A stretch of 64,000 nt of DNA, from positions 2,666,001 to 2,730,000 of the forward strand of contig NW_025408669.1 in NCBI RefSeq assembly GCF_020360975.1, in the 5' to 3' direction. The stretch comes from Hirsutella rhossiliensis. Its lineage: Eukaryota; Ascomycota; Sordariomycetes; Hypocreales; Ophiocordycipitaceae. Positions 27,650 through 61,888 of the stretch are shown here, piece by piece (position 1 is the first letter of the stretch; the number at the start of each line of letters is the position of its first letter). The position numbers were made by a program, and so were the translations under genes. A model generated the notes under the pieces. That model was not told the origin of the DNA. It did not search any database and saw only the letters and a list, made by a program, of their open reading frames with translations.

Positions 27650-28671
27650 AAAAGCTACTACTTAAGGGTCTCTTCTTCTTAAAAAGAGATTAGCTTACGG
27701 TACTAATAGATTTTATTATCTCTATATATATAGTAGTTAATAGTTTCGTCTTATAGAGGTATTCCTTATAGTAACTCTTATAGTTACTTAAGGTAGTAAA
27801 AGAAGCTCTTTACTATACTAAGGTTAGCTTAGAGAAAAGGGTAGCTCCCTTTATAAATTCCGTTGCCTTAAGATAAAGAGGGAGCTTAAGAGGGTCCTAC
27901 TTATTAAAGAAGATTAAATTATAGATAGTTTTATCTACTTAAGCTTATAGCTCCTTTACTTACTTATCTTAATCTTAAGGCTTTATAAGAATTGTTTTAT
28001 AAACTATAAGGGCGGTAGAGTTATTTTTTGATATTATTATAAAAGGAGGGTAGAAAAGCTAGTTAAAAATTAGCTTTTTTAATATAAAGGGTAAAAGGGG
28101 GCTATAAGAAATATAAGAAAGGTACCTTTTATAGTAGCTATATAGTATAAGAATTCTATTCCTCCTAGGCTTATAACTCTTATAAAAATAAATATAAAAA
28201 GTATATATAAAATATATAAAGGTAAAAAAGGAGATAAGAGGTTAAATAAGTAAGGTAAAGTTATTTAATTCTTATAAGGGTAGTAATTATAGTAAGGGAG
28301 TAATTATTATATTACTTTAATTATCCGTTTATCCTTTATTTAATACCCTTCTTTATATCTATTTAGTATCTTAATTAATAAAGAAGATCCTCCTTAAAAA
28401 AGCTATTAATATCCTTTTAACTACTAAGCTTTTTACTAGGTTTTCCCTTTTATTTTAGCCGGTTCTAGTATATCTATCTTATCTCTCGTTACTTCTATAA
28501 GAAGCTATCGCTACTTTTACTTCCCCTCTTACCCTTACCCTCCTTTCTATACCTCCTTTTAGCTCCTTCTTCCTTCTTCTATACTAGTTTTTTTTTAGCT
28601 TCCTAGGTCCCTCTTATTAAGGGATATCTATAAGAACTATAAAATTAAGCTATACTTCGCGATAATATAAG

Positions 28672-29260
28672 TATAAGAATATACCCTTATATTCCTATTT
28701 TACTATTATAAAGAAATAATAGGTATAGGGAGGCTCTATATAATAAGCTAGTAAAAAGAGGCTCTATAATATAGTTTAAAGGGAATAACCTTTAAAGATA
28801 AAAGACTTCTACTAGATATCTATAGCTTCCTTTAGGAAAAGCGGGTCGAGATAAGCCTATCCTAATAAATAAGAATATATATAAATTGCATAAGTTAATT
28901 ATAAGTAGAACGGATACCCTATTACCTATCTTAGCTTAGCGGTTCTAAAGATATCCGCGATACGAGAATAGGTAGGGCATAGAATATTCTAGTTAAATCT
29001 ATAACTTATACTAGAACCTATAGTCTTACGTTAACTATCACGCTATAATTAGACCACCTACTAAGTCTAGAAGATATACTATAGATAGAAATTTTTAAGC
29101 ACTATAGAATATACTAGAAAGCTAACTAATTAGTCTACTAGTAGGCGAGCAATAGTCTATAAAAGACAAAGGATTTCCCTAGGAGTAGTAGATAGAATAA
29201 GTAAGTTTATAAGTATCTTTTATAACTTTATTCTTTTAATATATTATTTAGCCCCTTATA
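28672..29260 (+). repeat. Second-family LTR fragment (partner of 44259-44954)
   Basis: 589 bp, reverse complement of 44366-44954, beginning TATAAGAATATACCC. The partner extends a further 100 bp or so beyond the point where this copy stops (29260), so this one is truncated or recombined. It is more RIP-mutated than the partner. Confidence 0.8.
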
Positions 29261-29280
29261 CCTTTTAATAATAAGCTAGT

Positions 29281-29370
29281 ATTATAAGCTTAATAGTAAG
29301 TATAGGTCTATTAATAAAGCTATATATTATAAGCTTAATAGTAAGTATAGGTCTATTAATAAAGCTATAT
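29281..29370. repeat. Identical 45-bp tandem duplication
   Basis: The 45-bp unit starting ATTATAAGCTTAATAG occurs twice head-to-tail (29281-29325, 29326-29370) with no differences. In a heavily mutated repeat block this must be more recent than the RIP mutations. Confidence 0.9.
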
Positions 29371-30250
29371 AGCTACTTATCCTTACTATTTAAAAGTAGA
29401 ATTATAAAATAAAAGTAATTTAATAAGTTATTAAAAAAGTTAAATATAAATAGCTTTTTTAAAGTAAGAGTAATAATAAAAAGAATAATAAGTAAATTTA
29501 ATTAAATACTAATATTAGTAAATAAAAGTAATAAAAGTAGCTATAAGAGAATAATAATAATTTAAAAGGGTTTAAAAGTTTTTAATTAAGTTTTTAAAAA
29601 AAAAGAAAATACTTTAAAAGTAAGATATAACTATTAATAATTAGTAAAAGATATCTTAAAGGTTAAATAAATAGCTAAAAATATATAAATAGCTATTTTA
29701 AAGTTAAGCTAGAGTTTAATAATTATTAACTATTAAATACGTAATAAGCTAAATTATATTTATAAGTAACTTAAAGCTATTAATATAAATATAGCAGCTA
29801 CTTTACTATAGAATTTTACTTCTATTATATATTTATTACTATTACTATAATAAAGTAGTATCTAACTACTCTTAACTAGTAGTACTATAAGATCTATATT
29901 AGTAAGTAAGCTATATTATATTATTAATATATTATAAGATAAGAAATAAGATAGAGACCGACTATAGGTAGGTGCTATTTAGTAAGCTATCGAAAGTAAG
30001 GTAAGGATAAATAAAAGCTAGGCGATATAAAGAAACGTAGCGGTTATAAAGAATGCCCGGAACATAGAGCGAGTAAAGACTATCTATAAAACCGAGTTAT
30101 AGCGGGATAAGGAAGCCGCGTAGAAGATAGTAGTAACTAGAGTATAAGTAATAAGAGATTAACTTTATAAACTCCTTCTTATTATCGTAGCCCTACTATA
30201 AGTTACTCTTAACCGTAAAACCCTAGTTTATAAGTAAGTTAAGTGCATTC
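29371..30250. other. Extreme AT-rich RIP relic
   Basis: Almost only A and T to about 29960, then mixed sequence with CpG up to a sharp border near 30250 where CpA and TpG reappear (TAAGTGCATTCCGGAG). No gene, LTR or domain is recognised. Confidence 0.6.
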
Positions 30251-30609
30251 CGGAGCTGGTATCCTAGCTCTATCATAGTTTCGGAAGAGTTCCTATTAGT
30301 AGCGTTGTCTACTAGGCAGTATGGGTCTTATCGAGAGCGCAGCCGAGTCTTCCGCGGGCCTAGCCTGTTACACTTTCCTTCTAACTCTCCTCTTATAACT
30401 ATATGTTTCACTTGGACGTTCATCAGTGTGCCATAGTTAAATACTCTCTTGCGGATTCTTATAAAACGGTGAAGGAACGATGGATGCGGGGAATAGATTA
30501 GGTGATTAGACAGGTTTCACTCGATGACTCAAGCCCGCCATGTCTATAACATGCTCTTCAATACCACTATAAGACATTGATCCGCATTGAAAAAGTCTCC
30601 GACTGCGGG

Positions 30610-30617
30610 TATTTAAA
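30610..30617 (+). promoter_or_regulatory. TATA-like box before the intron-array gene
   Basis: TATTTAAA lies 111 bp before the ATG at 30728, in a 470-bp stretch of ordinary, non-RIP composition. The spacing suits a fungal core promoter. Confidence 0.45.
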
Positions 30618-30727
30618 GTAGGCAAGACCAGGCTGTTAGAGAAAAGGAGTGCAGCTTCAAAGCGCGAATCTGGCTCTTACTCCTACGCTATATTTAACAT
30701 TGTCGATTGAGTCCGGTCAGACTAGCA

Positions 30728-32113
30728 ATGATTAAATCCCGTCCCACTAAAATGACGGTTTTTATTGCGATTTTCACGATGTTGACTGGATTGGCTATGG
30801 CGAGCCCAGCACCGGTTGGAAAAGTGGAAGAACAGGCAAGTATATACCGCAGTCAACAAGATCAAAGCCGACTTCTCCGCGATATGATGACCAACCTGGC
30901 GACTCTAGTGTGTAAGTTGCAGCCGCCCAGTGTGTTGGCGGCATGCTAATATGGCTGGCGACTCTAGTTTGTAAGTTCCGACTTATGGCTTGCAAGAATG
31001 ATCGCAAACAGCATGTTGATCTGCTGGCGACTCTAGGATGTAAGTTGCAAGCCGCCGTGGACGAGAGTGATCGCCAGCAGCATGCTGATATAACTGGCGA
31101 CTCTAGAATGTATGTTCTATGTCGTTATAGACGAGAGTGATTCCTAGCAGAGAACTGATATAGCTAATAACTCTAGTGTGTAAGTTTCACCCGCTATATA
31201 ATTATAAAAGTGATTACTGGCAGCACGCTGATATAGGAGCCGGCTCTAGCGTGTAAGTTCCAGTTTGCCACTAACGAGAGGCATTGCTCGCGGCATGCTA
31301 ATATAGCTGGCGACTCTAGTGTGTAAGTTGCATACCGTCATGGACAAGAGTGATTGCTAGCGGCTGCGCGGCATGCTGATATATGTATATTGTCTGGTGA
31401 CTCTAGCCTGTAAGCACCGACCTATGACTAATAAGAGTGATTGCTGAAAGCATACTGACGTTGCTGACGACTTTAGTGTGTAAGCTCAATCAGTCACAGC
31501 CGAGAGGAACTATTAGTAGATTGCTAATATATCTGGCGACTCTAGCCTGTAAGTTCCGACCTATGACTAACGGGAGTAATCGCTAGCGGCATGCTGATAT
31601 AACTGGCGACTCTAGAATGTAAGTTCCTAGCCGCCATAGATAATAGTGACAGCTAAGTAGCAGAATACTAATATACTTGGCGACTCTAGACTGTAAGTTA
31701 TAACGCGACGCCCGTTATAGCCGAGAGTGATTGCTAGCAGACTACTAATATAGCTGGCGACTCTAGTGTGTAAGTTCAACCCCTTAGGGCTAAGGGTTAT
31801 AGATAGCAGGATGCTGATATAGCTGGGAACTCTAGTGTGTAAGTTCAATCCGTCACGACGAGAGGTATTGCTTGCGGAATGCTAATATACCTAACGATTC
31901 TAGGGAGTAAGTTCCGATTTATCACAATAAGAGTGACGGCTAGCGGCATGCTGATATAGCTGGTAACTCTAGTGTGTAAGTTTAACCTATTACGGGCAAG
32001 AGTTATTGCTAGCAGAATACTGATATAGCTGGTGACTCTAGTGTGTAAGTTTAACTCGTTACGGACGAGAGGTATTGCTAGCGAAATGCTAATAAAGCTA
32101 GCGACTCTAGGAT
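30728..32113 (+). CDS. Small secreted-type protein gene running into a tandem intron-like array
   Basis: The first exon (30728-30911; an in-frame ATG at 30752 is an alternative start) encodes a basic start, a hydrophobic stretch TVFIAIFTMLTGLAMA and an ASPAP cleavage-type site. A polar segment ending RLLRDMMTNLATLV follows. This looks like a signal peptide and short secreted protein. At 30912 a consensus donor GTAAGT begins the first of 17 successive intron-like units (see the array entry), each followed by a 3-nt spacer. If every spacer is an exon, phase is 1 after exon 1 and a TGA forms two triplets later, so the full product is uncertain: skipping, nonsense-mediated decay or a decayed gene are possible. 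No 3' exon can be assigned; a LINE begins at about 32344. End coordinate is nominal. Confidence 0.4.
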
Positions 32114-32198
32114 GTAAGGTAAGCTCTAAGCTTTTATAGATAAGGGTGATTGCTAGTTAGTAGGAATATAGTATTAATAATATCGTTAGCGACTATAG
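30895..32198 (+). repeat. Tandem array of about 18 intron-like 69-bp units with 3-nt spacers
   Basis: Consensus unit: GTAAGTT, about 18 variable bases, GAGAGTGATTGCTAGC, GGCATGCTGATATA, GCTGGCGACTCTAG, then three bases. Donors start at 30912, 30971, 31040, 31110, 31180, 31253, 31323, 31410, 31480, 31549, 31619, 31693, 31770, 31839, 31907, 31976 and 32045, with a weaker one at 32114 (GTAAGG). Acceptor AG ends at 30967, 31036, 31106, 31176, 31249, 31319, 31406, 31476, 31545, 31615, 31689, 31766, 31835, 31903, 31972, 32041 and 32110. Lengths are 56-84 nt, mostly 65-67. Spacers in order: TTT GAT AAT TGT CGT TGT CCT TGT CCT AAT ACT TGT TGT GGA TGT TGT GAT. Branch-like RCTRAY is present in 16 of 17. 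The middle third is the most variable part. One unit read straight through also gives a 23-codon peptide beginning LATLVCKLQAAVDES. Confidence 0.9.
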
Positions 32199-32479
32199 TT
32201 TAGAAAAGTCGATCCGTAATAGGTGAGTTCTAAAAACGCTAGTAATACTACTAAGTAACTTAGCGGGAGCAACGGACGTATAGAGATTGCTCCGTATTAG
32301 TTATCGCGGGAGATAGCTACGGTCGTTATATAGAGACGCTAGTTTTTTTAGAGTTTTTTTATATTATTACTCGTATATAGCCTCTAGGGCTATAGTAAGG
32401 CTAATAAGGGCCTAGGCCCCTATTAGTAGCCCTAGCTAGCTATAGAGCCCGGGGGCTTAAAACTAATTAGGGAAAGGGT

Positions 32480-35400
32480 AGCTATAAAGGTAAAGATAAA
32501 GGAAAGGTTAGTCTAGTTCCTCCCGCGCGGTGATTTTCCCCCCTAAGGGCCCTATAGCCCCTAGGTTACTCCTTTTTAAGCTACTTAGCTATCCCTATCC
32601 CTATTTTAGCTAAGAAGGTTAGAAGGGCTTCCCTTCCTTCCTTAGAGCTATAGAGAATAGGTAGGCTAAGGGCCCCCTCCTATCTCTTAGAGGTCTAGTA
32701 AAGGACCTCTCTTTCCCTCCTATAGTTTAGGCGCCTTAGGATAAGGTGCTTAGCCGTATACCTTCCTTAGCCGTAGCGGTAGTTATCTTAGTCTACCTTA
32801 TTAGTCCTTTTTAAGAAGGAAAATAAGAAGCTAGCCTTAAAGAGGAGCTAGTAAAAGGCCGAGAGGGTCGGCTTAGGCCTCCCTATAGAGTCCTTTTCTA
32901 AGCTAAGGGCTAGGCGGGGGGTCTTTTAAATAGATATATAGTACTTACCTAGGCCCTTAGCCCTAGGGCCTTTAGCCGCCTCGGTAGCCTAGAGTCCCTT
33001 CTAATAGTCCTTAATAGCTTACCGGACCTTTCTTTATAAGTAGCTAATAGAGACTAAGGGGGTCCCTTAGGGAGGGGCCCCTAAGCCTCTTTTAGCTAGC
33101 TAGTTAGTAAGCTCGTTACTAAAGATCCTTAGGTAGCTAAGGCACTAATATAGCTATACGTTATAAAAGGCTTTTAAGCTAAATAGAAGCCTTTTAATAT
33201 ATATAGCTAGGTCTAAGAAACTTATAACCTTCCTTATAGCGGCTTAGCTATTTATAAAGATATAGGTATCTATAAGGGGGTTAAGGGGGCTAAGCCTTAA
33301 GGGCCGAGGGCTCCTAGCTAGGTCCTCTAGGACCCTTAGTATCGCGAATAGCTCTACGTTAGCTACTTTAATTAAGGGCCCTAGGTTCTCGTAGTACGCT
33401 TTAATAGGCTTATTTTCTAGGCTTATTTCGTAAAAGGAGTAAGCGTTAGTCTTTATAAAGGATCCCTTAAGGCACCCCTTAAAGCCGTTAGTATAGAAGG
33501 CTAGGAGCTATAACCTAAAGTCTTTTAGGCTAGCTAGGCTAGCTAAGAGGCGTTAGTACTACTTCTTAGCTAAGAGCTTAGGGGCCTCTATTATTATAAT
33601 AAAGGCCTTAGGCTCTAGGGCCTATAGGGGCTCCTAGCTAGCTTTCTTTCTTTCTAAGTTATAATTAAGTCCTATAAGAGCTACTAGGCCTTTAAGGAGG
33701 CGGAAAAGCTATATATATAGCCTAATATAGCTTAAGGCCCTTAGGTCGGAGCCTAAGTTAGCGAGGTCGTCCTATATAGCTAGGTCGTAAGCTTGCCTTA
33801 TAGGGTAACTAGGTAAAAGGTATAGGGTCTAGAAGGTATAGGAGAAGTATACCCTTTTAAATTATACCTTTAGTAGCGGTAGGGCTGCTTTAGCTTTTAA
33901 AGCCTTAATAAGGGATCCTTTAAAGGCCCCTAAGACCTTTAAAAGAGCTTAGTTTTAGAGCCTTTAAAAAAGCTTTATTAAGCTCTTAGGGGTCTTAGGC
34001 CCCTTATACTAAAGCTAGGTCCTATAGTCTACTATAAAGGTTATATAGGCCTAGTAAAGCTATTTAAAGGCTTTAAATAATAGGCCTTTTTATATAAAGG
34101 TTAAGTAGGATAGTCTTTTAAAGGTAGCTTATATAGAAGCTACCTTCTTCTTAATATATTATTTAAATAAGAGCTTAGAATTAAAAAAGACCCCTAGCTA
34201 CTATACTAAGGGCTTTACTTTAAAAAATAAGTCTCTTACTATTATACCCTTTAAAATAGGCTGCTATTGCCTATTAAAGTAAATAAGTTCTATCTTTAAG
34301 GGGTTAAAGTAGACCCCTTAGTCTTTAGCTTATTTAAATAGGTTAGTAGCTATTCCTTCTAGCTATTAAACGTTCTTCTTAGCTGAGGTCGACGTTATAA
34401 AGATACTAAAGTTATCTATATAAGATAGCTAGTATCCCTTAGCCGCTAGTATCCCCCTTATATATAAGAGGAATAAAATAAGGCTAATAAGGGACCTTTA
34501 AAGCACCCTTATTACTAGGTCTATAAGGGCCTAGACTTACCCCTCGAAGGCTAGCTAGATCTTCCTTTTAATAAGGAAGTAGTCTACTTAGCTTATAAGG
34601 GCCTTAAGGAGGTTTAAGTCCCTTAGGACCCTTATAAGCTATTCCTTTAATATAAAATTAAAGGCGCCCTTTATATTTAATAAGAGGGTATTAGTAATAG
34701 CTTTCTTATTAGACTCCTACTTCTTTTAGATATAGTATAAAAGGAGGAAGGCCGTGTTTATAGCTAACCGCTATTTTCGTCCCCTTAGCTATATAGGGTT
34801 TAAAAGCCCGGCCGTATTAGCTAAATAGCTTAGCCGGGTAGCGTATAGCTTTTTAAGGACCTTTCCTAAGTAGTTAAATAGACTTATAACCCTATAAGCC
34901 TTAGGGATAGTATAGTCTAGCTTATTTTACTTAAGAAGTATAATTCTTATAGCTTCCTTTTATACCTTAGGGTAGTATCCTTAGTTAAATAAAGCTTTAT
35001 AGGCCCTATTAAAGACTATAAGGATAGCTTTATATACGTATTAAATAAGGAGGAAGCTAAGGGAGTCTAAGCTAAGGGCTTTCTTATTAAAAGAGCTAAA
35101 AATAGCCCTCTTAATCTTAGGGTCCTTTAGCTCTAGCTAGTCTTACTTATCTATACCCTTACTACTTATATAGCCTAGAGGCTCTTCTTTTTCTAAGCTC
35201 TAAGGGGGGCTAAGGGGGGGGCTAGGGCTAGGGTCTAAGGTTAGGAAAAGGGTCGTTAGGAAGGCCTTATATTTTTCTATAAAGGTATTAGCTTTTACTT
35301 TTATCCCTTTTTTTATATATAAGATACTAAGAAGGGTAGGGTTAGCTCTAGCCTTAGTATAAGAAAAGGCTATAAAGATATCCTTTCTTATTACTTTTAT

Positions 35401-35750
35401 TAAGAAACTCTCTTAGTATTGCTTTTTTATAGCCTTAATAGTATACTTAAAGCTATTTCAGGCCTTTATAAAGCTCTTTTAGCTCTCCTTATCCTAGGCT
35501 AGCCTATAAGCCTATTAAGCTAGGCTTAAGGCTTTTTAAAGGTAGGTTAGCTTATTAGTCTACTAAGGCTTAGATCCCTTATAAGGCCTCTTTTTCGGTA
35601 TCGCTACGTTTAAAGCCTCTATAAAGGTTCTTATTAAAAATAAAGCTATCCCTTTTAAGTTATCTCTTTTTATAGCCCTCTCTATAGCTTTAAGAAGGTC
35701 CTATTCCTTCTTAGCTAAGTATTTTAAAAATACCTTTTAGTCTACTTTCC
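32480..35750 (-). pseudogene. LINE ORF2, 3' part: reverse transcriptase and RNase H
   Basis: The frame can be followed for about 1000 codons with RIP stops. It contains the RT blocks (AYRVISLFNYLGKVLKKL, then IQLRGRK, NTLLLNIKGAFN, PLISLILFLLYI and YIDNFSIFIT), each one or two residues from family consensus, the catalytic YIDD being YIDN. RNase H blocks follow: TNGFKGCLKGSF, NVELFAILRVLEDLA and IFINSQAAI. Asp-to-Asn changes at both catalytic sites and TAG stops show it is dead. The 5' part of the ORF (endonuclease) is at 43697-45450. Confidence 0.85.
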
Positions 35751-35755
35751 TATAA

Positions 35756-36329
35756 TTATAATCTAAAGGTATATAAGCAAAAGCGGAATTTTAGGAAATT
35801 AAGGAATTACGTAAGACTACGTAATAGAGGGGAAGAAGGAGTATAAGGTAGGATTTTCAACGAAATTTATTAGTAGTATATTAGTATATAGAAGAGGTAT
35901 TAAAGTTAATAATCCTCTCTTTATCTACTAGCGGATATACTATCTTATATAGATAATTATAGCTAAACGGAAGAACCTTTCGGGACTAGATTTAGGCTGC
36001 CGTATAGCCTTAAGACTAAGGAATTTAGTAATACCTCGAGTATATTAAGAAGTGTCTTAGTTCTACTAATATTCGTGTTTAAAGGAGGTTAGTCGTACCG
36101 GTATTCTTAAGAGGTCTTAGCTAGTATTCTAAGCTAGCTCTATTTCTACGATTCTTAGTTATACGATAACCGGCAACCTATTTAATGCATAATAATATAT
36201 AAAATAACGAGCGATTCTTACTCTATAATATAGGATTTTATCTATAATTAATATACTACTTATTAGCTTATATAATTAGGAGAGTATATTATAGCTGCTT
36301 TATTTATAGTAGGAATACTATTTCTTATA
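35756..36329 (-). repeat. 3' LTR of the nested copia element
   Basis: 574 bp, paired with 43121-43696; the last bases are TTTCTTATA. The same family occurs as a solo LTR at 27082-27649. The family also shares short blocks with the solo LTR at 44259-44954, so the two LTR families are related. Confidence 0.9.
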
Positions 36330-47455: not shown

Positions 47456-48280
47456 GTGGTCGACGGACTTTGCCGAGTGAGCGGCAATGAAAATCCCCTG
47501 GACATAATCGTGAACTTGACGTTGGAATGCGTCATCGGCCGCTCCGCTGAAGTAGCGACAAACCAAATCGTTAAATCTGGAAAGCGACCAGCGGCCATCA
47601 AGTGGAGGCCGACGACCAACACATGGCGGATTCAGGCTGTCTTTTCGTCAGTCGCCTGCGTCAGAGAAAACACCTGGATCAGTATATTTTCACTCGAACC
47701 GAGAACCATGTACAGGTCCGAAGCCTTGATTCAGCACCCCGCGTCACGCTGAACAAGCACGTTCCCGGGCTTCTCGAAAGACTACTCGATACTATCCAAT
47801 GGGTCGAGCACAAGGCAGCCTATGATCCTCTTCCCGCAGATCACGCGGTTCAGTTTATACGAGGGTAAAGGCCAATGCCCAAGACTTTGCTGCCATGTTC
47901 CGAGAAGCAGCTTCACCTGCTGTAGCAGGGGCAGTGTTGCCGAGGCTTTAGAGTTGAAGCTCTGCAAGATTCTGGGCCTGGAAGCCGACTATAGGACAAT
48001 CAGCGATGGGAACTCACTTGGAATTGACACTCGTTTCTCTAAAGGTGCGAAATTGACTGACCAAGACGATGCGGGCGGATATGGCCGTTTACGAAATCCT
48101 AGGCGACGTCAAGCTCGTCGATACTGGGTTAATGGCAGCGAGGAAGAGCGAGTTTTGACCAACGCTGGGATCACGCGGCTCTTGATTGGCATGTGTATAG
48201 TTGGAGACCAACGGCCGATGCATACTGGCACAGGTAAGCGTAGTTTGCACGTTTCACAAGCTACATTCATCAGTTTCTAA
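47456..48280 (+). pseudogene. Unrecognised gene relic with frameshifts
   Basis: Codon-like composition runs through three plus-strand frames in turn. First comes 47456-47640 (VSGNENPLDIIVNLTLECV), then 47602-47868 (HLDQYIFTRTENHVQVRSLD, then LLERLLDTIQWVEHKAAYDP), then a stretch to a stop at about 47954 (NAQDFAAMFREAASPAVAGA). The overlaps suggest single-base indels rather than introns, as no donor/acceptor pair fits. A further open stretch continues to 48280. I do not recognise the protein. It lies at the border of the RIP block but is not itself RIP-mutated. Decay beside heterochromatin is the simplest reading. Confidence 0.3.
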
Positions 48281-48891
48281 TATTGTGTCATAGATATCAA
48301 GTTCAGTCTTTCACCAACCGGCGAGAGCTTCAAATCACTACATGTTCAATGCGAGGGCTTCGAGGACGTCTGACTGCGTGACAGCTATGAATCATGATTC
48401 CAAGAACGAAACTCTCGAGTTGCATGGGCGCTATTGCAGTAACATGCTGGAAGTTTCTCCTTCTCAGGATTCAACGCTGCAGAGCCTGATAGCCCATGCT
48501 CCTTGGTTTCTTAGGTGTTCCGAATTGACCCACATCCGCTCGCTGAGAGGAGGCAGTATAAGGCGGTGGGCCAAGCAAGGAGAGGAGGTGGTGAAATAGA
48601 ATTACGAGTGGTTGGCCATGGGGAATGAATATCTCGCAGTAAGAATTAAGCACGGGAATCCATCCCTTTGTTCGGCCCTGTACCACTTCACATGGAAACA
48701 TCACTTCAGCACCTACGAATTCGTGTTGTCTCTGCACCATTATCGTTGAGGTGACTCGGAACTGAATCACTCGGCAGCGGAGGGACTATCGGCTGCACGA
48801 CGCAACGTCATATTGCACCTATTTGGTAGTCTCTGTCATGTCATTTACTATGGTCATGAGGCCATCGCAACATAAATCTGTCACTTCAAGC
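48281..48891. other. Intergenic, no supported gene
   Basis: Ordinary composition. Short open stretches on both strands (for example 48342-48599 plus, 48471-48770 minus) overlap each other and carry no motif. The left end may hold the tail of the relic ending near 48280; the right end holds the 3' flank of the SDR gene. Confidence 0.5.
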
Positions 48892-49903
48892 TTATTGATC
48901 AATGGCACTCAGGCCCTTGATCGACTCCAGGTCCTGCAGGCGTCCCTCCAACTTGGATTTGATCAGCATCAATGCAGGAGCGCCAAAAGGCAGATGAAGT
49001 GGAACTTCCTGGCCTCGACTGGCCACCTCAAACAGAACTCTGGCGAGGGCGGCGGGCTCAAGCATGCCAGCACCAGACTTGATACTCTGTCGAACAAAGG
49101 CCTCCAACTTTCGAGAGGGCATGTCGTCGGCCGCATAGGCTGCATGGGGTTGCATGTATTTCTTGCCGCCGCTTTCAAAGTCCGTCTTGACACCGCTTGG
49201 TTCAACGATGCAGAAGTTGACTGTGCAGGTGCTGGTCAGCGACGGCGTCTACCACGCAAACCATGTATTGGCTTACTGTTCCAATCGGGATGCATTTCCC
49301 GAGCGACAGACTCGGTCCAGCCTTCGACGGCGAACTTGCCCGCGTGATAGTACGCGTGGCCGGGAAAGGCACATACCCCGGCCAAGGAGGATATGTTGAA
49401 AACCAAGCCACCGCGGCGCTGCTTGTCCTGGCGCATGGCCTCGACGGCGCGCATAGTCACACGGGCGGTGCCGAAAAACAGAGTTTCCATCTCGTGATGA
49501 GTTTCCTCGTCTGTTGCGGCCTCGGTATCGCCTGAAAGGGAGTATCCGGCGTTGTTGACCACCACGTCGATGTAATGGGTCTCCCCAAAGTGAGCTGCGG
49601 CCGCCTTGAAGGCATTGTTGACGGAGACGGGTGAGGTGACGTCTAGGGCAAGCTTGAGGATGTCGGGGTCGTTGTCGGCAAGGTAGGAAAGGGTAGAGGG
49701 ATCCCGCGCAGTTGCAATGAGTCGCTGCGTGGGCTTTGCCGCGATGAACTTGGCAATCTCACGGCCGATGCCCTTCGAGCACCCGGTGACTGTACGACGG
49801 CAGGGTCAGCATGTCGTTGTGTTTACTCTTACGCTAGAAGCACCATACTCAGCCAGATGGCGCCATCCGGAAGATGGTAGGGCTTGGTGTTGGCTGGATT
49901 CAT
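48892..49903 (-). CDS. Short-chain dehydrogenase/reductase
   Basis: Three exons (49849-49903, 49277-49789, 48892-49220) give 298 aa, the usual size of a classical SDR. Introns of 59 and 56 bp (GTATGG...CAG, GTAAGC...CAG with GCTGAC branch sites) are required: splicing restores AIWLITGCSKGIG across the first and DWNINFCIVEPSG across the second. Motifs: cofactor glycine motif T20GCSKGIG27, N97NAG100, Ser at 152-153, catalytic Y166xxxK170. Asp-48 after the second strand (ATARDPS) together with Arg-47 fits an NADP-preferring enzyme. No signal peptide or membrane segment, so probably cytosolic. It likely oxidises or reduces a small alcohol/ketone; the substrate is unknown. Its neighbours give no pathway. 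Confidence 0.9.
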
Positions 49904-49983
49904 GTCGGTCTTGTGAGTTGAGTCTTATTATACTCTACTTGACATAAGTGAGCCCGGATGCCAAACCTGCCATCTTGTCCGGG

Positions 49984-49991
49984 TTTATATA
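49984..49991 (-). promoter_or_regulatory. TATA box of the SDR gene
   Basis: TATATAAA on the minus strand, 81 bp upstream of the ATG at 49903, in a GC-richer setting (GGGGTATATAAACCC). Confidence 0.6.
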
Positions 49992-49999
49992 CCCCGCGG

Positions 50000-50537
50000 C
50001 CTCGAAGCTTCAGTCCGACTTGATCTAAGTTACCGTCTACTAACTAAATTCTCTACCAATATGCACCAGCTGCAGCCGCAACCCCATGGCCAATTGGCCA
50101 AGTTATATCTTGGCCAGGTGAGTCACACGGCGTCAGCCCCGACAAGGCCGATGGGTCAAACACAGGAGAGCAGGCCGCTTATTCCAGTCGCCCTGGCTGA
50201 GCCCCTCGTCGCAAGACGCGGTTCTACTTCGTACATCCGACAGTGGCGGCGCCGCTTGTTTCAAAGCCGCCGATGATACCGGAAACGTCATCAAAGGATT
50301 ACACACGCCGCTTTACCCACAGGCCGGATGGATCCTGCTTTCACCGACGTGGCCGGATGCGTCCAAAGCCACCCCTGAATCCACACCAGGCCGCTTCACT
50401 ACCATCCCTGACCGGGGCGCAATCTACACTAATAAATGCCTCTTCAATACATTACGTGGTTTCATTTAGACAAGCAAAATACTATGGAAGAATGATACGT
50501 TGCCCCGACAGTCAATGTCGCTCCCGGCTTCATGCTT
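50000..50537. other. Intergenic between SDR and aspartic protease
   Basis: It should hold the 5' flank of the SDR gene and the 3' flank of the protease gene. Short plus-strand open stretches at 50061-50276 and 50243-50554 have low-complexity, Arg/Pro-rich products without motifs and are not called. Confidence 0.5.
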
Positions 50538-52293
50538 TTATAGCCCCAAGGTGAGGACCAAGGCCGCGCCGACGGCCGCTGCGAGCCCCTTTGTGTTGGC
50601 CGCCAGCCTGCCAGCGGCTGCGCTTTGCCCATTACTGCCGCCCTCTGCCTTTGTCTCTGTCTGTGCGTTCTCTCCGCTCTCGGCCAGGCGGGTGTTGGGC
50701 GCCAAGTCTCGTTGCCCGCATTGTCCCGACATGTTCGCAAACTCCGACGACTGGGCCGTCCTGGGAGTATCGCCGCAATTGGCGTACTGGGCCAGAAGGA
50801 CGTTGTTTCCATCAATGTCAAAGACGGCTTGATTTCCATCCGTTAGCATGTCGGAATGTAGTTGAGATATTGCCTGCTGGGCACTCACCGTAGGCAGACC
50901 TCAGAAACGTGTCGCCGAGCAGCGCCAGGCTGTCGCTCTCCATGACGCCCAAGTAGCACTGGCTGGCAATGCCTGCGTTGGACTGCACCTGTTGCTGCCT
51001 GATGACCTCTTTATATGGCACTCTGATGGTGACGCCGTCGAAGGCAAAGTCAAACGACCCGGCTCGCTCGGCCATCTGGCACGGGACCTGGCGCAGGCCA
51101 GTCTGGTCCGCTGGGCCAGCCGACAGGGCAGACGCCATCTCTTCGACCAAGCTCGTCGGGAGAAGCGCCAGGGTCGAGCCCGTGTCGAGGATGACGGGCA
51201 TGGTCGAGTTGCCCAGCCTGCTGCCGCTCGCCCGGCCGGGAGCCGTGTGCGAGATGGAGTCAAGACGCACCCAGAAGCGCGGCACTTTATCGGGGGACTT
51301 GGCGGGTGGAATAATGGGCTGCGGCTTGAGCTTGCCGACAAACTTGGACGAGTCGATGCCCCCGAAGATGATTGATCCCTGCTTCTCGCCCTTGAGCCCG
51401 AGCCCGATGCTGTACGACTTGCTTCTCGTCAAGCCCTGATCGGCAAGCTGGTCGATGAAGTTCTTGTACTTGGTTGAGACGCCCTTTCCGGCCGCGATGC
51501 CCAGGATGCCCGACGACATCATGCGCGACGACGTGGCCACTCCAAACTTGACGCCTTTCATGGCGGGCGAGTTGGGCAAGTTGGCGAGCGCCACATCGTC
51601 GATGAAGTAGGTAAAGTTGACGGAGCCGCTTCCGTACCTGATGCCGCTCTTTTCCCCCGAGGATGAAGCTGTATTCGAGCTGTTCGAGTTGTACCTGCCG
51701 ACCTTGCTGGTGCAAAATGCCTGCTCGGCGGAAGAGCCCGAGGTCGAGCAGTCTGCGTTGATCCAAAGCTCCGACGACCCGGTATCTACCAAGACGCGGA
51801 TGGCTTGGGGAGGGTTGCCAAACTTGACTGAGGGGCTCGTCAGTATCTCTTGCTCGCCGGAAGACGGAGGACGAGACATACGGGTGGTGTAGTATGCAAT
51901 GTCGGAGCGAGGTTGCAGTCTCTCGTCCAAGGCTTCAGCGCCCCCGGTCCGCTTCACCAGTTTCGGCGTTTCGCGGCGCTCTATGACCAGAACGAGGGCA
52001 CCGGCCGCGTTGTCTGTGTTGTTCGGATCGGCGCCCGCATTGCCGGCCTGTCGTTTATCGGGAAAGAGACGGGACCCAATCCACGATCTCCTGACAGCCA
52101 TCGGGACTGTCAAGCTCCCCATGCCCCAGGCCTTACCGGGGGGGGCTTGGGACGGTTCCGAAGACTTCAGGTTCATTATCGGAGCCAGGGCGTCTGACCC
52201 GGCTGCAGCTTCTGCAGGGGCATTGGGATCTTGAGGGCGCGAATGCACGCATAGAGCGGCGGATAGCAAGACGAACAGCCATGGTGGTGCCAT
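50538..52293 (-). CDS. GPI-anchored pepsin-like aspartic protease (yapsin type)
   Basis: Two exons (50889-52293, 50538-50827) joined over a 61-bp intron (GTGAGT...GCTAAC...AAG) give 564 aa and restore LRSAYAVFDIDGNNVLLA, the conserved end of the fold. A signal peptide (residues 1-18, LFVLLSAALCVHS) is followed by a propeptide with Kex2-type KR sites at 80-81 and 114-115. Catalytic motifs are VDTGSSELW (Asp-170) and LDTGSTLAL (Asp-370), with flap Tyr in GIRYGSGS (Tyr-220). After the catalytic domain comes a Ser/Gly/Thr-rich stalk and a hydrophobic C-terminus (LAAAVGAALVLTLGL) expected for a GPI anchor. Fungal yapsin-like enzymes act at the plasma membrane or wall, processing proproteins and wall proteins. 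The 3' splice site AAG is unusual but the only one that fits. Confidence 0.93.
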
Positions 52294-52352
52294 TGCGTCG
52301 GTGTGGGAAGGGCAGAGTTGGTTTGGACATTGACGGCCAGCAGCACACGGGG

Positions 52353-52360
52353 TTTATATA
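52353..52360 (-). promoter_or_regulatory. TATA box of the aspartic protease gene
   Basis: TATATAAA on the minus strand, 60 bp upstream of the ATG at 52293, the typical distance for an inducible fungal gene. Confidence 0.6.
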
Positions 52361-53621
52361 GAATCACATCAGACGACACGGATCCATGTCCTGGCCAGGA
52401 GATCGCAATGCATATCCGCCGTCTTTGCCACCCCAAACCTCGACTACTAACCCCGTAAACAAGTCCGAAACGACGCGATCTGCCGCCGGGAGTGGCATTT
52501 CGTTATGCTGTCTGAGATGGAGACTAAAGACTCCAGGGGGGATAGAAAGGTGCGACAAAATCGCGACAAAACAAACCGAACCACGCATGGCGGAACTTTC
52601 GACGTGATTGAATCATGAGAGTAGAAGATAGATATTCTATTTCGAACGAGGGCCGGTGTTTAGTCGCTGCTGCTAAAACAGGACAAATATCGCCTTCAGC
52701 TCCATATACGCCTTGCGCCCTGAATTGCATACGCGGCGCCAACGTCTCGAGGCTGCTCATCCCGCAGTATCGGTTTCGAAATGGAGCCAAATGGAGCCAG
52801 ACGAAGCAGAGTAAGTAATACCGACGAACATCAAACTGGCGACTGGCTCCCCCGTGGACTACGCAAATACGGCATCTTTTCCTTGTTTGCCCTAGCGCGA
52901 ACTGCTTTAGTCAGATACAACTACGGGGAACTATTATTGTAAGAAACACCGTGGGGAAACACAGTGTCTCCGCCTTCTGGAGTCGACATTGCTGCTCATG
53001 ATACTTATAGGTCGCAAAGGTGCTATAAAGAGCACATATGCATTTGACTTGTAGCATGCTTTATTATTCACTTGTTTATGGCTTATATAGAAGCACTCAT
53101 TCATATATATATATATATATATGTATATGTATATTGAAAACTTGTTGTCACGAGTTCTCGGAGCATGAGCTCTGCTCGGTATTTTCATTCGAAACTTGAG
53201 GCTCAGCAAAACAACACCAGAGGCCAAGGAGTAACGGGAGATGCGAAAGCAGAAGCGCTGATGGTGGCCGAATACGGCGACTACCTGATATGCATGCTCT
53301 TGAGATGGCATTGCCCAGCTTGAACACACACACACACAATTACACATCTTAGAGTACCTTGAGAGAACCACCTCACCCCTTATCCACAACGATGTAGGGC
53401 CCCAGTCAAAGGGTCAAGAGAGTCAGCGAGAAACTTGGCGACTGGATCATTCATACTTTATTCCTGTGCGCTGACTCATGATGTCTAGGCAGCTCAATAA
53501 CGTTCCACGTCCGGGGCTAGAAGAGCTGCATCCTCGCTACGCACTTATCCAGTGCCAACCACGTCACAGATCGCTGCATCATGGCCATCCTTCCCCCTCC
53601 ACTCCATGGTCCCGGTTCTTC
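52361..53621. other. Intergenic with two microsatellites
   Basis: This is the upstream region of the protease and the 3' side of GCN2. It contains an (AT)10-like run at 53103-53122 followed by TGTATATG repeats, and a (CA)n run at 53323-53338. Open stretches on both strands here lack motifs. No gene is called. Confidence 0.6.
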
Positions 53622-58720
<5,099 letters not shown>

Positions 58721-59345
58721 GTCGCGCGAGTGCAGGCCAAATGTCCCAGCCGAGGCTGCGACATTTTACACGGAAGAGGCCATGGGGGAAGGATATCGCA
58801 TCGAGTGAGGGAGTGAGTTGGAGCAATGCAAGGCCAAGGGTTTGAGCGACGCTTCTTTTCTGGGTGGAGTTGCCATGTGGCGGGGTAATTAATTAGGTAC
58901 AGTAAAATACACATAAGAGTGAGTACTTTGTAACTACTTCGTATAGGCAAATCTCAAGCCCGGTTCGGTCTGCCCAGGACTTGTCCAGAAAAATGACGAG
59001 CATATTGAAGACCGCCTGGATATCACTGAGTGCTCGCTCTTGTCCATCACTGGCTGATGCGATGCACGAACAGCCGGATGGTTTCGGTGAGACGGGCACG
59101 GAAAGACGGGCACGGAAAGACGGGCACGGAAAGACGGGCACGGGAACCGTGTGGTTGTTAAGTCTCAGCCTCTCAGGTAGGGGGGATGAAGGCACAGTGG
59201 AAGGCGCAGGATATTATTCATGTGTGTTCCACTCAATCTAGTGGGATAGGTATCAAAGGGGTCTTTGTAGGTACAGAAAGTTTTATAGCAGAATAAGGGA
59301 CCACGGTTCGCTGTTAGATCATCGAGCGGGCAAGCAATTGGCTAA
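58721..59345. other. Intergenic between GCN2 and the P450
   Basis: It contains the GCN2 promoter side and a 14-bp minisatellite (59091-59146). No further gene is seen. Confidence 0.6.
59091..59146. repeat. 14-bp tandem repeat, four copies
   Basis: GACGGGCACGGAAA repeats at 59091, 59105 and 59119 exactly, and at 59133 with one change (final GGGAA). It lies about 370 bp upstream of the GCN2 start codon. Confidence 0.93.
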
Positions 59346-60387
59346 TTAAAGAAGAGAAGCATCGCCTTCCTCCAAAGGGTGCTCGACCTGGACGCTTTCG
59401 ATCAGGCTTACATGCTTGGCGCTCCTGGGCAACATACTATAAGGAACCGCCACCGGATGGCTAACCACGCCGGCGGTCGGCTCGAGCTTTACCTCAACCT
59501 CTCTGCCGCGCCTATCAACCGCCTTCCGAATGCTAAACGCGGCCAGCATCTGTACAACGGTAATAAATAATGTAGACTCGGCCAGCATCTGGCCGGCGCA
59601 TACTCTGCGTCCAAAGCCAAACGTTGTTGCCCTGGGATCGGGCTCATTGCGTGGCTCCAGATACCGGTCCGGGCAAAATGAATCCGGATCTGTATAGACC
59701 TCGGGATCGTGGCAAAACCACCAAACGGCAGGAAGTAGATACGCACCCTTTGGGATCAGATGGCCGTTGTAGGGAATATCTTCGTTTGCCATGTGCGCGA
59801 GACCCATCGGCACAACAGTTGACCATCGATGGACTTCCTTTACCATAGATTCGATATATGGTAGGTTATCTCGGTCTTGAAGCTGGGGAAGTCGGTCCGT
59901 GCCGATAACTCTGTCAATCTCCTCTTGCGCTTTGCGCTGCACCTCGGGAAACATGACCATGGCCACGATAAAGCCACTGAGGCTCGCGACGGTAGTATCC
60001 GCACCCGCACCGTACTGAGTCGCGGCCGTCCACTTGATGGAGTCCTCGTCATGGCTGCTGCTGTCGCCGTTTTGTTCAAGCATCCTGGAAACAAATGACG
60101 GTCTGTGGCTTCCTTTCTCCATCTGCTGTTGAACGAAATGGTAGGGGACGTCTGCCACGTCCTGGCTGACCTTGCTCCACTGCTTGACCGTCTCCTTGAA
60201 TGCTGTGCCGGGAAAGCCGCGAGGCAGATACCTAAGGGCAGGGATAATGTCGACTAGCCAGGCCATAGGCACAGCTGCAGCTGCAAAGTTTTCCGCCATA
60301 TTCTCGATCAGGTCGACCAAAGGGTCGGTTTCCTTGCGCTCGATGGAATAACCATACGTTATTTTAAGGATGATGGCACCAGCCAAG

Positions 60388-61266
60388 CTATACAGTCAAG
60401 AGTTAGAACCTGGTCTACCCTTCCAGTTGCCAAACCGGTGATCGAGGCCCGCCCGGACTTATAAGAAGACATTTTTACCTTCCTCTCATTCCAGGAAACG
60501 TGAAAGTCAGGGTAAGATTATTACTTAGATAAGATTTCTTAGTACTAAATAAAGTCGATATCTTAAATTCTAAGGGAATAATATTTATTAGCTTATATAG
60601 TAACCTAATAGTTATAGCTCGCTTAACTTAATAGGGCTACGCGATCTATTATTAGGTTATATACTAAGCCGACGTCGATATCCCTGTATATAAGATAAAA
60701 CGCTTACTAGCGTAGATTAAGGATATACTAAGGGATCGTACCTTAGTATTCTTTCTAAGAGACCTATTATTAGCCTATAACTTAATCTAAGGTATAACTC
60801 TAGTTATAGCGGTTAATACTACTACTCGCCGCGTTTACTGGGAGTGTCGAAAGCTCAGTGAGAATAGAAATTTTTGGGGGCCTTTCATGTTGGGTGTGGG
60901 AGTAAACATCCCGGTTTTTGAGAGCATCACCGCCGAAATGGAAACAAGCATGCGCGAAACATGGCAGGAAGAGACCAGAAGAATCGTCAAATTAGGGAGT
61001 TGCGGTGCGAGCGCGGTTTTTATGGAGGGTCAAGAATCGTGTTCTGTTGCCGAGATGGACAGCGTTAAGGGTAGAAAGCTTTTAGAAAGGGCGATGAAGA
61101 TGGTTCTCGACGAGACGAATAAGCCGAAGGAATCGCCAAGTAACTAGTTATCCTTTTCCATCTTAAAGATCTATCCTCTGCTCCAGTGCTCTTTCCCTTC
61201 CCGCCTGAAAATCCTGCTATTTCTTGATGTCCACGACCAACGGCCCCGACGAGGCCGAGATCAGGG
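60388..61266. mobile_element. Composite insert in the P450 intron position
   Basis: 879 bp between the two P450 exons, where fungal introns here are 53-61 bp. The part at about 60512-60838 is AT-rich and nearly lacks CpA/TpG, that is RIP-mutated repeat DNA. The part at about 60840-61266 has ordinary composition and an 86-codon plus-strand reading frame. The outer bases next to 60388 are the old intron end. No LTR or terminal repeat was seen, so the element type is unknown. Confidence 0.6.
60887..61147 (+). CDS. Hypothetical 86-aa reading frame in the P450 insert
   Basis: ATG at 60887, stop at 61145-61147, antisense to the P450. The product is polar and probably helical (ITAEMETSMRETWQEETRR, later RKLLERAMKMVLDE), without Cys pattern, signal peptide or known motif. 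The frame is open upstream of the ATG too, so it may be a fragment of a longer protein carried by the insert. Not RIP-mutated, unlike the sequence just left of it. Weak evidence that it is a gene. Confidence 0.25.
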   Translation: MLGVGVNIPVFESITAEMETSMRETWQEETRRIVKLGSCGASAVFMEGQESCSVAEMDSVKGRKLLERAMKMVLDETNKPKESPSN

Positions 61267-61888
61267 ATGTTAAAATGCTTAAACAGGTCATTTGGTTGCT
61301 TTAACGCACGTAGAAGAAGTCGTCGTGCTTCCACGTCCTGGATGCCACAATACCGGGCCACCGCAGGTTTTGTGCCCAGCTGTTGATGCAAGGCCTTGCG
61401 AGCCTTGCGATGATAAGCGTCATTCTGTAGGAGAGGTACGAGATTGTTGAAGCCACACGACTGAATCGCGTAACTAATCGCCGGGCGTGCCGAGGTTCTA
61501 ATCGTGTTCTTTTCTAGGAGATGGTGTGCCGCTTCCCTATCGTGGATAATAACAAGCGTGTGGCCCATCACAGTAACCGAACTAATCGGTCCGTAACATT
61601 CCTTATGCCTGAGCCAGTGCCGAAACTCCGGGATCCCTTTTGGGGGGAGGTCCAGGATGTTGCCGACCAAAGGCAGTGGTGTTGGGCCAGGGGGGGGGCC
61701 TAATATGTTCCTCTTTTGGAAGAGAAGTCGATGGGCTATGAAGGCAAGCAGAGCAAGAGTGATTGCTTGTATGATAAGTGTTTGCGTCATGGTAGAGAAA
61801 ATTAATTGACAGTTGTGGAAAGAAGGCTGGCTCTGAATCTTAGAACGAAGGCTGTGGGATAGTGCAAGGTTATTAAATGCGCTTGTTT

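What the first reader, a model, noticed from the sequence alone, without database searches (positions are those of the whole stretch)
30895..32198. Tandem array of 17 intron-like units separated by exactly 3 nucleotides
Seen: each roughly 69-bp unit contains a fungal donor (GTAAGT in nearly all, GTATGT once, GTAAGC twice), a branch-like CTRAY about 15-25 nt before the end, and CTAG as acceptor. Between each acceptor and the next donor there are always 3 nt, though unit length varies (56-84). Those signals are better kept than the unit interior, which fits selection on splicing. If spliced, this is a gene with 16 or more consecutive 3-nt microexons, which I have not seen described in fungi; the nearest known ideas are introner elements and micro-exon genes. 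The flanking first exon has a TATA-like box and signal-peptide-like start.
Basis: partly seen in the sequence, partly recalled or inferred. Interest (0 to 1): 0.93.

Follow-up and report, generated by a model that had tools for sequence, protein, structure and literature searches.

The report
Fungal gene of one-codon exons
In a fungus that is, or is closely related to, a nematode parasite, a family of genes for small secreted cysteine-rich proteins appears to be cut into dozens of exons of a single codon each, so that almost every amino acid of the mature protein is spliced in separately; related copies without the introns carry a clearly similar protein in one piece.

Summary
The window gene has 18 exons of exactly 3 nt between introns of 56-84 nt. 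In the same 81.8-Mb genome, six more loci carry about 32 to 74 consecutive single-codon exons behind a phase-0 first exon, signal-peptide-like in five. The strongest evidence is genomic: three intronless paralogs and one mosaic paralog carry, in one piece and the same order, a protein similar to what the largest array carries codon by codon (mature part 65.7% identity over 67 aligned positions, E=1e-29, against at most 28 bits in 200 order-shuffled controls). DNA similarity stops at the end of exon 1 and resumes at the stop codon. Acceptor and next GTAAGT are 3 nt apart in 244 of 255 cases within 0-15 nt. In the most regular array, codon positions 1-2 are nearly random while 44 of 70 intron columns are invariant. 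Two products read as candidate cystine-knot peptides, with two manual choices. Most likely the unit 'intron + codon' is duplicated, so proteins vary residue by residue without frameshift, and mRNA-mediated intron loss made the intronless copies. No transcript was examined; whether the window copy works is uncertain.

The parts
30451..30727 (+). probable promoter and 5' UTR
   Evidence: No RIP-like depletion here, (CpA+TpG)/(ApC+GpT) 1.15 against 0.08 at 28001-30000, 0.39 at 30001-30450 and 0.07 at 32201-34000; function inferred
30728..30835 (+). exon 1, 36 codons, MIKSRPTKMTVFIAIFTMLTGLAMASPAPVGKVEEQ, signal-peptide-like, ends in phase 0
   Evidence: read; resembles exon 1 of L010, L011, L013, L014, L025 by eye
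30836..30908 (+). intron 1, GC-AG type, its 3' end TGGCGACTCTAG as in the array introns
30909..30911 (+). microexon 1 TGT (Cys)
30968..30970 (+). microexon 2 TTT (Phe)
31037..31039 (+). microexon 3 GAT (Asp)
31107..31109 (+). microexon 4 AAT (Asn)
31177..31179 (+). microexon 5 TGT (Cys)
31250..31252 (+). microexon 6 CGT (Arg)
31320..31322 (+). microexon 7 TGT (Cys)
31407..31409 (+). microexon 8 CCT (Pro)
31477..31479 (+). microexon 9 TGT (Cys)
31546..31548 (+). microexon 10 CCT (Pro)
31616..31618 (+). microexon 11 AAT (Asn)
31690..31692 (+). microexon 12 ACT (Thr)
31767..31769 (+). microexon 13 TGT (Cys)
31836..31838 (+). microexon 14 TGT (Cys)
31904..31906 (+). microexon 15 GGA (Gly)
31973..31975 (+). 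microexon 16 TGT (Cys)
32042..32044 (+). microexon 17 TGT (Cys)
32111..32113 (+). microexon 18 GAT (Asp)
30912..32110 (+). stretch holding introns 2-18 (56-84 nt each, between the microexons), similar to one another: donor GTAAGT/GTAAGC/GTATGT, branch-like motif, acceptor mostly CTCTAG
32114..32198 (+). probable last intron (donor GTAAGG, degenerate)
   Evidence: read by hand; the script, which accepted only ends with a stop directly after an acceptor, ended it at 32160, so this end is uncertain
32199..32219 (+). probable last exon TTT AGA AAA GTC GAT CCG TAA, uncertain
   Evidence: read by hand

Best explanation
The window holds one member of a gene family whose mature product is encoded one codon per exon. 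The primary transcript carries a signal-peptide-like exon, then 18 (in paralogs up to 74) single-codon exons separated by short introns that are copies of one another, then a terminal exon. The ordinary spliceosome, working by intron definition on introns of mostly 55-100 nt with near-perfect GTAAGT donors, removes each intron and joins the codons in phase 0 (inferred; no RNA seen). The product is a secreted, cysteine-rich small protein; several paralogs carry a Kex2-like KR at or near the end of exon 1 (inferred from sequence). The genetic unit that multiplies is intron + codon: gain, loss or exchange of a unit changes the protein by whole residues without frameshift, and the codon varies much more than the intron around it. 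Intronless and partly intronless copies of one subfamily arose most likely through recombination with a cDNA.
For: Exact 3-nt spacing: 244 at 3 nt against 11 in total at the other distances from 0 to 15 nt over seven arrays. Seven arrays modelled with exon lengths of 3-15 nt allowed: 275 of 277 internal exons came out at 3 nt; the script favoured 3 nt mildly and excluded stops. Without a stop filter, 284 junction triplets contain 0 stops against 6.6 expected from base frequencies (P about 0.001; units not independent, a few junctions spurious) and 48 Cys codons against 23. Hand-chosen first-exon donors are in phase 0. Intronless paralogs L035 and L036 (two copies) and mosaic L041 carry the L010 order in one piece: mature part alone 65.7% identity over 67 aligned positions, E=1e-29, 87 bits, against at most 28.1 bits in 200 order-shuffled controls; spliced CDS against L036a E=3e-61. 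DNA similarity between L010 and intronless L035 ends within 2 nt of the modelled exon 1 end (2098 of 2100) and resumes exactly at the modelled stop codon (7817; L035 stop at 3785), both stops in the context TAACTCCG. L009 array: 30 units of exactly 73 nt with entropies of 1.97 and 1.86 bits at codon positions 1-2 and 44 of 70 intron columns invariant (one of the 30 triplets comes from a doubled donor). Of 20 groups of identical introns in four arrays, 15 are followed by different codons (L011 8 of 9, L012 6 of 8, L010 1 of 2, L009 0 of 1). Third-base pyrimidine in the mature part: L010 66/74, L035 77/85, L036a 65/66, L041 60/69, against 8/32, 10/32, 11/32 in the first 32 codons of L010, L035, L036a and 210/363 in a conventional exon: the intronless copies keep the array's codon habit.
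Against: No transcript or protein was examined. The window copy lies in RIP-like DNA, its second half is partly affected (index 0.68), no copy of the family's 3' hairpin was found near it, and no intronless relative of its own peptide was found. The full six-Cys knottin reading depends on two manual choices: in L025 one 172-nt intron where the script, capped at 120 nt, put a 15-nt exon; in L013 the terminal exon CMPRNA, which the script did not choose (a shorter form of it was in its second-ranked model). L009's microexon tail is not alignable with the C-terminus of six relatives of its upstream ORF. L011 and L012 are near copies, so their counts are not independent.
Confidence: 0.9

Rival explanations
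1. Intron gain instead of intron-plus-codon duplication: the intronless genes are ancestral and an introner-like element inserted after nearly every codon. The exons would still be single codons and spliced; only the history differs.
For: Family-type introns also sit in a conventional-looking gene around a 6-nt exon (L015, read by eye), so the introns may be able to move; the array introns resemble one another as introner-like elements do.
Against: 65 of 66 mature codons of intronless L036a end in a pyrimidine, against 11 of 32 in its signal part, odd for an ancestral gene but expected for a copy of an array grown from NNY units. Several arrays share one prevailing third base (T in 28 of 35 triplets of L009 and 17 of 18 of the window, C in 53 of 74 of L010 and 32 of 43 of L011), as if each grew from a founder; L013 and L014 are mixed. 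L041 lacks introns in one contiguous block and keeps three at its 3' end.
Confidence: 0.15
2. The family is real, but the window copy is a pseudogene that no longer makes a product.
For: RIP-like flanks and partly affected second half; degenerate last donor GTAAGG; no 3' hairpin found; peptide CFDNCRCPCPNTCCGCCD has no canonical knottin spacing (by eye); Pfam gave only two families below their cut-offs.
Against: 18 of 18 junctions intact, no stop among its triplets, donors the most conserved columns, promoter and exon 1 free of RIP-like depletion.
Confidence: 0.35
3. The array is removed as one long intron or by serial splicing that skips the microexons; the 3-nt pieces are never translated.
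For: Tandem duplication of an intron plus 3 nt would give constant spacing; splicing of neighbouring 3-nt exons is sterically hard and must be stepwise (inference).
Against: Intronless paralogs encode similar residues in the same order; codon positions vary as a protein would and contain no stops.
Confidence: 0.04
4. Unspliced satellite DNA with splice-like motifs by chance.
For: The units are tandem repeats.
Against: Arrays with different common unit lengths (about 69, 73, 75 and 87 nt) all keep the 3-nt spacing and the splice signals; intronless paralogs; reversed-pattern control 2 against 205.
Confidence: 0.01

Closest known systems
Micro-exon genes (MEGs) of Schistosoma (PMC10526429; two passages seen, one of them in the abstract)
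   Same: Secreted proteins built from many very short exons (3-81 bp), in a parasite
   Different: MEG exons vary in length and their introns reach 5 kb; here nearly all internal exons are 3 nt and the introns are short copies of one another; another kingdom
Introner-like elements of fungi (PMC4457414; outline and abstract seen)
   Same: Families of similar introns that multiply in a fungal genome
   Different: There, introns are gained at positions in various genes; here tens to 74 copies lie in tandem one codon apart in one gene, and only one other conventional-looking site (L015) was seen
Stwintrons and sister introns of Hypoxylaceae (PMC8469720; outline and abstract seen)
   Same: Proliferating similar introns in a fungal family
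   Different: Stwintrons are nested introns; here a codon lies between successive introns
Plant ultra-short microexons, e.g. the 1-nt exon of APC11 (PMC8831610; passages seen)
   Same: Exons of 1-15 nt are spliced, often missed by annotation, and intronless APC11 copies were explained there by RT-mediated intron loss
   Different: In the passages seen, isolated or two adjacent microexons, not runs of 18-74 single codons
Trichoderma Xlr2 microexon (PMC11121469; passages seen) and two 3-nt exons in lipS of Dactylellina haptotyla (PMC5639578; one passage seen)
   Same: Microexons, including 3-nt ones, occur in filamentous fungi
   Different: Single or paired cases; no arrays mentioned in the passages seen
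Inhibitor cystine knot (knottin) peptides; Pfam Toxin_12; knottin-like secreted proteins predicted in Beauveria bassiana (PMC12099005; passages seen)
   Same: Spliced L025 and L013 products show the Cys spacing and weak matches (Toxin_12 E=0.0024 and 0.011; L025 to Jingzhaotoxin-3 E=0.0062)
   Different: Both Pfam matches are below the curated cut-off; fold not tested; that those genes have conventional exons is recalled, not checked

Membership tests
Spliceosomal gene with single-codon exons (own definition) | consecutive 3-nt exons between complete U2-type introns | tested here: met
   275 of 277 internal exons in 7 models; 284 introns, GTAAGT in 243, TAG or CAG acceptor in 281, CTRAY within 5-40 nt before the acceptor in 269
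Spliceosomal gene with single-codon exons (own definition) | codons joined in one reading frame | tested here: met
   intronless and mosaic paralogs of L010 carry a colinear protein contiguously; shown for the L010 subfamily, inferred for the window gene
Spliceosomal gene with single-codon exons (own definition) | spliced RNA observed | not testable with these tools
   no transcript data available
Micro-exon genes (MEG) | most of the mature coding sequence in very short exons, product secreted | tested here: inconclusive
   exons; secretion only inferred from the signal-like exon 1, no predictor run
Micro-exon genes (MEG) | homology to schistosome MEG proteins | not tested
   no comparison with MEG proteins was made
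Introner-like elements | near-identical introns at scattered positions in many unrelated genes | tested here: inconclusive
   one conventional-looking gene with two such introns (L015); the other places returned by the DNA search are arrays or array fragments, but that search scores only the best candidates
Inhibitor cystine knot peptides | six-Cys ICK spacing | tested here: met
   for L025 (C6C6CC4C7C) and L013 (C6C5CC4C14C) only, each with one manual choice at the 3' end; 699 and 429 of 100000 residue shuffles also match the loose pattern; not met by the window peptide (by eye)
Inhibitor cystine knot peptides | curated family score | tested here: not met
   Toxin_12 18.9 and 16.8 bits against a cut-off of 21
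Inhibitor cystine knot peptides | knotted fold | not tested
   no structure was predicted; the prediction tool takes sequences translated without change from loci, which spliced products are not

The most novel reading that the evidence does not exclude
A genetic system in which the amino acid is the unit of gene evolution: a self-similar 'intron + codon' module is duplicated, deleted and exchanged inside genes for secreted peptides, so that new cysteine-rich peptides are composed residue by residue without frameshift; successful ones can be stripped of their introns through reverse transcription and fixed as ordinary intronless genes. Diversifying selection acts on the two variable bases of each codon.
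Probability: 0.6. Interest if true: 0.98.

Novelty: categorically new. Interest (0 to 1): 0.95.

Why it matters
In the papers seen, exons of 3 nt occur singly or in pairs; runs of 18 to 74 of them, each a codon, would be a new gene architecture. It bears on long-standing questions: how small an exon the spliceosome can define and how often in succession; how introns multiply and how intron-rich genes turn intronless (L041 looks like an intermediate); and how parasites build variable secreted peptides. Gene predictors are unlikely to model such genes (inference), so a class of secreted proteins may be missing from fungal annotations. The central claim is directly testable with one long-read cDNA experiment.

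Tried and rejected
Rejected: exon 1 ending at 30911 (stop at the second following codon; read). Rejected: unspliced repeat or peptide repeat (unit lengths vary; intronless copies). Rejected: joint skipping of the microexons.

Led nowhere or against: Pfam on the window product and on L009's upstream ORF, on the L025, L013, L010 and L011 products and on L035, L033 and a piece of L031 gave nothing above a cut-off. Protein search with the L025 product: no homologue. Six-frame searches for intronless copies of L025 and of the window product found only their own first exons. L009's relatives do not share its microexon tail. Rfam on L009, L010, L025, L028 (4 loci): no match up to E=1, so none for the 3' hairpin. 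The SSU rRNA search for the species did not complete, so the species rests on 90 identical leading residues between L036b and Hirsutella rhossiliensis HRG_012392. In none of the rows shown by ten literature searches did I see a report of runs of single-codon exons; three lists were capped (20 of 44, 20 of 98, 15 of 534), and subscription journals and preprints are not held. No structure prediction was attempted.

Rows dropped or choices made: L012 was left out of the pooled codon count as a near copy of L011; that pool includes a few spurious junctions, e.g. a doubled donor in L009 and some inside the insert of L014. A first count of identical-intron groups lost groups through clashing labels; one search replaces it. 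Of 26 genome places with the 3' hairpin, nine lay in loci already held, nine more lie in the eight regions, and eight were not looked at. The list was cut by the tool, so arrays on later contigs may be missing. L031, L032, L026, L027-L030 and the remnants L037-L040 were read by eye only.

Full report
1. The observation. One search confirms 18 junctions of the form TAG-NNN-GTA[AT]G[TCG] from 30906 to 32108, with exactly 3 nt between each acceptor and the next donor. The introns between them are 56-84 nt. In an alignment of the 17 window units the donor hexamer has a mean entropy of 0.14 bits, the last 12 nt 0.39, the middle 0.78, and the three codon positions 1.73, 1.57 and 0.32. So the splice signals are the best kept part and the first two bases of each triplet the worst, as selection on splicing plus free change of the encoded residue would give. 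TRF sees the array as an imperfect 69-bp repeat.

2. The window gene. Read by hand, exon 1 runs from the ATG at 30728 to 30835 (36 codons, hydrophobic signal-like start...ASPAPVGKVEEQ), followed by a GC-AG intron 30836-30908 whose 3' end matches the array introns. The first triplet is then in phase 0. The 18 triplets read C F D N C R C P C P N T C C G C C D. The 3' end is uncertain: by hand the last intron ends at 32198 and a short exon (FRKVDP, stop) follows, while the script, which accepted only a stop directly after an acceptor, ended at 32161. The gene is an island in AT-rich DNA with RIP-like depletion: (CpA+TpG)/(ApC+GpT) is 0.08 at 28001-30000, 0.39 at 30001-30450, 1.15 in the promoter, 1.36 in exon 1, 1.25 in the first and 0.68 in the second half of the array, and 0.07-0.08 at 32201-36000.

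3. A gene family. A DNA search and pattern searches found further arrays: the double-junction pattern has 205 matches against 2 for its reversed control (five of the listed places are copies of an unrelated repeat with stop triplets). I modelled seven arrays with a script that scores donors, branch motifs and acceptors and allows internal exons of 3, 6, 9, 12 or 15 nt, with a mild preference for 3 nt, stops excluded, introns of 45-120 nt and a stop required directly after the last acceptor: window 18 internal exons, L009 32, L010 74, L011 43, L012 41, L013 35, L025 34; 275 of 277 are 3 nt. A simpler count without any model: over the same seven arrays, an acceptor-like YAG and the next GTAAGT are 3 nt apart 244 times and at any other distance from 0 to 15 nt 11 times. 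Pooled over eight loci (L012 left out), 284 junction triplets hold no stop codon against 6.6 expected from their base frequencies, and 48 Cys codons against 23; units are related and a few junctions spurious, so the probability of 0.001 is only a guide.

4. Gene ends. First exons read by hand end in phase 0 in each modelled array: L010 MKVTIVLLTTLAGWGLASPVLDAESGAKLEKRA, L011 (and L012, identical over 32 residues) MQVTIVLFTALAARGLASPVLDAKSDANLEKR, L013 MKFIVALLAVLAGVAVASPTKQ, L025 MQLSIALVAVLVGLGMANPAINERRQ. L009 differs: its array follows 363 codons of a long ORF, also in phase 0. By eye, in L009-L012 the last acceptor is followed at once by TAA and in L025 by TGA. For L010 this end is confirmed independently: the stop of intronless L035 stands in the same context (TAACTCCG). 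The KR at the end of several first exons is a Kex2-like site (recalled motif; not tested).

5. The strongest test. Eight regions around further copies of the family's 3' hairpin were fetched. L035 and L036 (two tandem copies) hold intronless genes with nearly the same first exon as L010 and, in one piece, residues that L010 carries as separate exons, e.g. NCCCV...GCPSCAVLSNPAVCR.APPVCGAC. The mature parts alone align with 65.7% identity over 67 aligned positions (87 bits, E=1e-29) for L035, 54.8% over 62 (64.7 bits) for L036a and 64.1% over 64 (84.3 bits) for L041; 200 order-shuffled versions of the L010 part reach at most 28.1 bits against L035. At the DNA level L035 matches L010 up to base 2098 (modelled exon 1 end: 2100) and again from 7817, the first base of the modelled stop codon, with 5.7 kb of array between. 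L041, found by a six-frame search with the L011 product, is a mosaic: 101 codons without introns, then three family introns around a 33-nt and a 3-nt exon, and TAA directly after the last acceptor (read by hand). The conversion between array and contiguous coding sequence, in either direction, implies that the single codons are exons of one frame. This is shown for the L010 subfamily and inferred for the window gene by its shared architecture.

6. How it evolves. In L009, 30 units are exactly 73 nt (one of their triplets comes from a doubled donor); codon positions 1 and 2 have entropies of 1.97 and 1.86 bits, position 3 0.85, while 44 of 70 intron columns are invariant. Over the seven modelled arrays there are 20 groups of identical introns, in four arrays; the codon after the intron differs in 15 of 20 (L011 8 of 9, L012 6 of 8, L010 1 of 2, L009 0 of 1) and the codon before it in 10 of 20. 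L011 and L012 are near copies on two contigs: the first 11 and the last 10 units are identical, the next 13 nearly so, and then LLNDHLPGGP stands against GGGGLGGP, a net change of two whole residues. In the intronless copies the mature codons end in C or T in 65/66 (L036a), 77/85 (L035) and 60/69 (L041), against 11/32 and 10/32 in the signal parts of L036a and L035 and 210/363 in the conventional exon of L009. That is the habit of the arrays, where each unit inherits its third base, so loss of introns from an array is more likely than insertion of 74 introns. L035 shares with L010 about 290 nt just upstream of exon 1 (in a block of 391 nt with exon 1, 79%), a further 182-nt block upstream (85%) and 134 nt from the stop onwards (85%), so recombination with a cDNA followed by duplication fits better than simple retroposition. 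The direction remains inference.

7. What the products are. The modelled products are Cys-rich by eye. L025 reads ACTPIFQKCGFRIPPCCKGLICKGVGSKTCRKP and L013 CLQNGGQCYSSRSCCPGSRCKPIGGAYVYLIAGR plus CMPRNA, both with inhibitor-cystine-knot spacing. Each rests on one manual choice: in L025 a 172-nt intron instead of the 15-nt exon placed by the script (capped at 120 nt), in L013 the terminal exon CMPRNA, not the script's choice. Sequence support is weak but agrees: Pfam Toxin_12 E=0.0024 and 0.011, below the cut-off; PDB Jingzhaotoxin-3 E=0.0062 for L025, residues 2-24; only E=0.63 for L013 to a spider peptide, behind noggin at 0.2. A loose ICK pattern is met by 0.7% and 0.4% of residue shuffles. 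The window peptide has no such spacing by eye. Function is inferred: small secreted proteins of a parasite, possibly acting on its host or on competitors.

8. The organism. The only database match of the L035 protein is HRG_012392 of Hirsutella rhossiliensis (E=4e-22); its first 90 residues are identical to L036b. The genome is therefore probably that species or a close relative. That record's contig is 14.45 Mb; none of the contig lengths seen here (largest 11.99 Mb) equals it, so it is another assembly. The rRNA search did not complete.

9. Against what is known. A 2024 abstract states that functional microexons had not been described in filamentous fungi (PMC11121469, passages). A 2017 paper mentions two 3-nt exons in one gene of Dactylellina haptotyla (PMC5639578, one passage). 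Plants have 1-15-nt exons, with intronless copies of one gene ascribed to RT-mediated loss (PMC8831610, passages); schistosome MEGs have exons of 3-81 bp (PMC10526429, passages). In the rows shown by ten literature searches (three lists capped) I saw no runs of single-codon exons. I rate the architecture categorically new because exon size, number in a row and mode of growth all lie outside these cases; a cautious reader may call it an extreme micro-exon gene. The splicing machinery invoked is ordinary.

10. Limits. No RNA, no protein, no second species. Models depend on hand-read ends. The list of arrays is incomplete (the list was cut; eight of 26 hairpin places were not visited). Whether the window copy is still functional is open (I give about 35% that it is a pseudogene).

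Noticed in passing
L010:2064-2118 (-), L025:2797-2851 (-), L036:1543-1597 (-) and 11 other copies aligned; not found at the window gene: A conserved 55-nt hairpin lies downstream of array, intronless and some conventional-looking genes; 26 places genome-wide with 0 in the reversed control, four of 17 stem pairs with compensated changes among 14 sequences and three pairs broken in one sequence each, no Rfam match in the four loci tested.
   Followed up: partly
L015, oriented positions about 2548-2687 (C8 near 396.3 kb): A conventional-looking gene carries two family-type introns around a 6-nt exon (TCACCA), which hints that the introns can reach other genes (read by eye).
   Followed up: partly
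L009 (C8:674500-682500): A 32-codon array follows in frame a long ORF whose relatives (P0002-P0007) have a different conventional Cys-rich C-terminus; the array seems to have replaced the tail of another gene.
   Followed up: partly
L014 (C8:1044000-1053999): A long array of the family is interrupted by about 2.9 kb bounded by inverted repeats, probably a DNA transposon (by eye).
   Followed up: no
L031 (C1:10.7 Mb) and L032 (C6:1.21 Mb): Runs of about 7 to 12 triplet junctions, rich in Pro, Ser and Gly, between introns that look unrelated to the family, so single-codon exons may be more widespread in this genome (by eye).
   Followed up: no
C1:8921443, C1:9907899, C3:3968804, C3:4523288, C5:3841737 (own genome): An unrelated repeat (TAGTARGTAAGTAATAGTCTATAAAAG...) that also fits the junction pattern, with TAA or TAG as first triplet.
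   Followed up: no
window 1-47000 against 48000-64000: The left part is AT-rich (GC 0.24-0.47), with RIP-like depletion where measured (28-36 kb); the right part is GC-richer with long ORFs that look like an aspartyl protease, a protein kinase and a P450 (names recalled from the sequence, not tested).
   Followed up: partly
window 61889-62095 and 59090-59143: A 108-bp unit present about twice and a perfect 14-bp tandem repeat of 3.9 copies.
   Followed up: no
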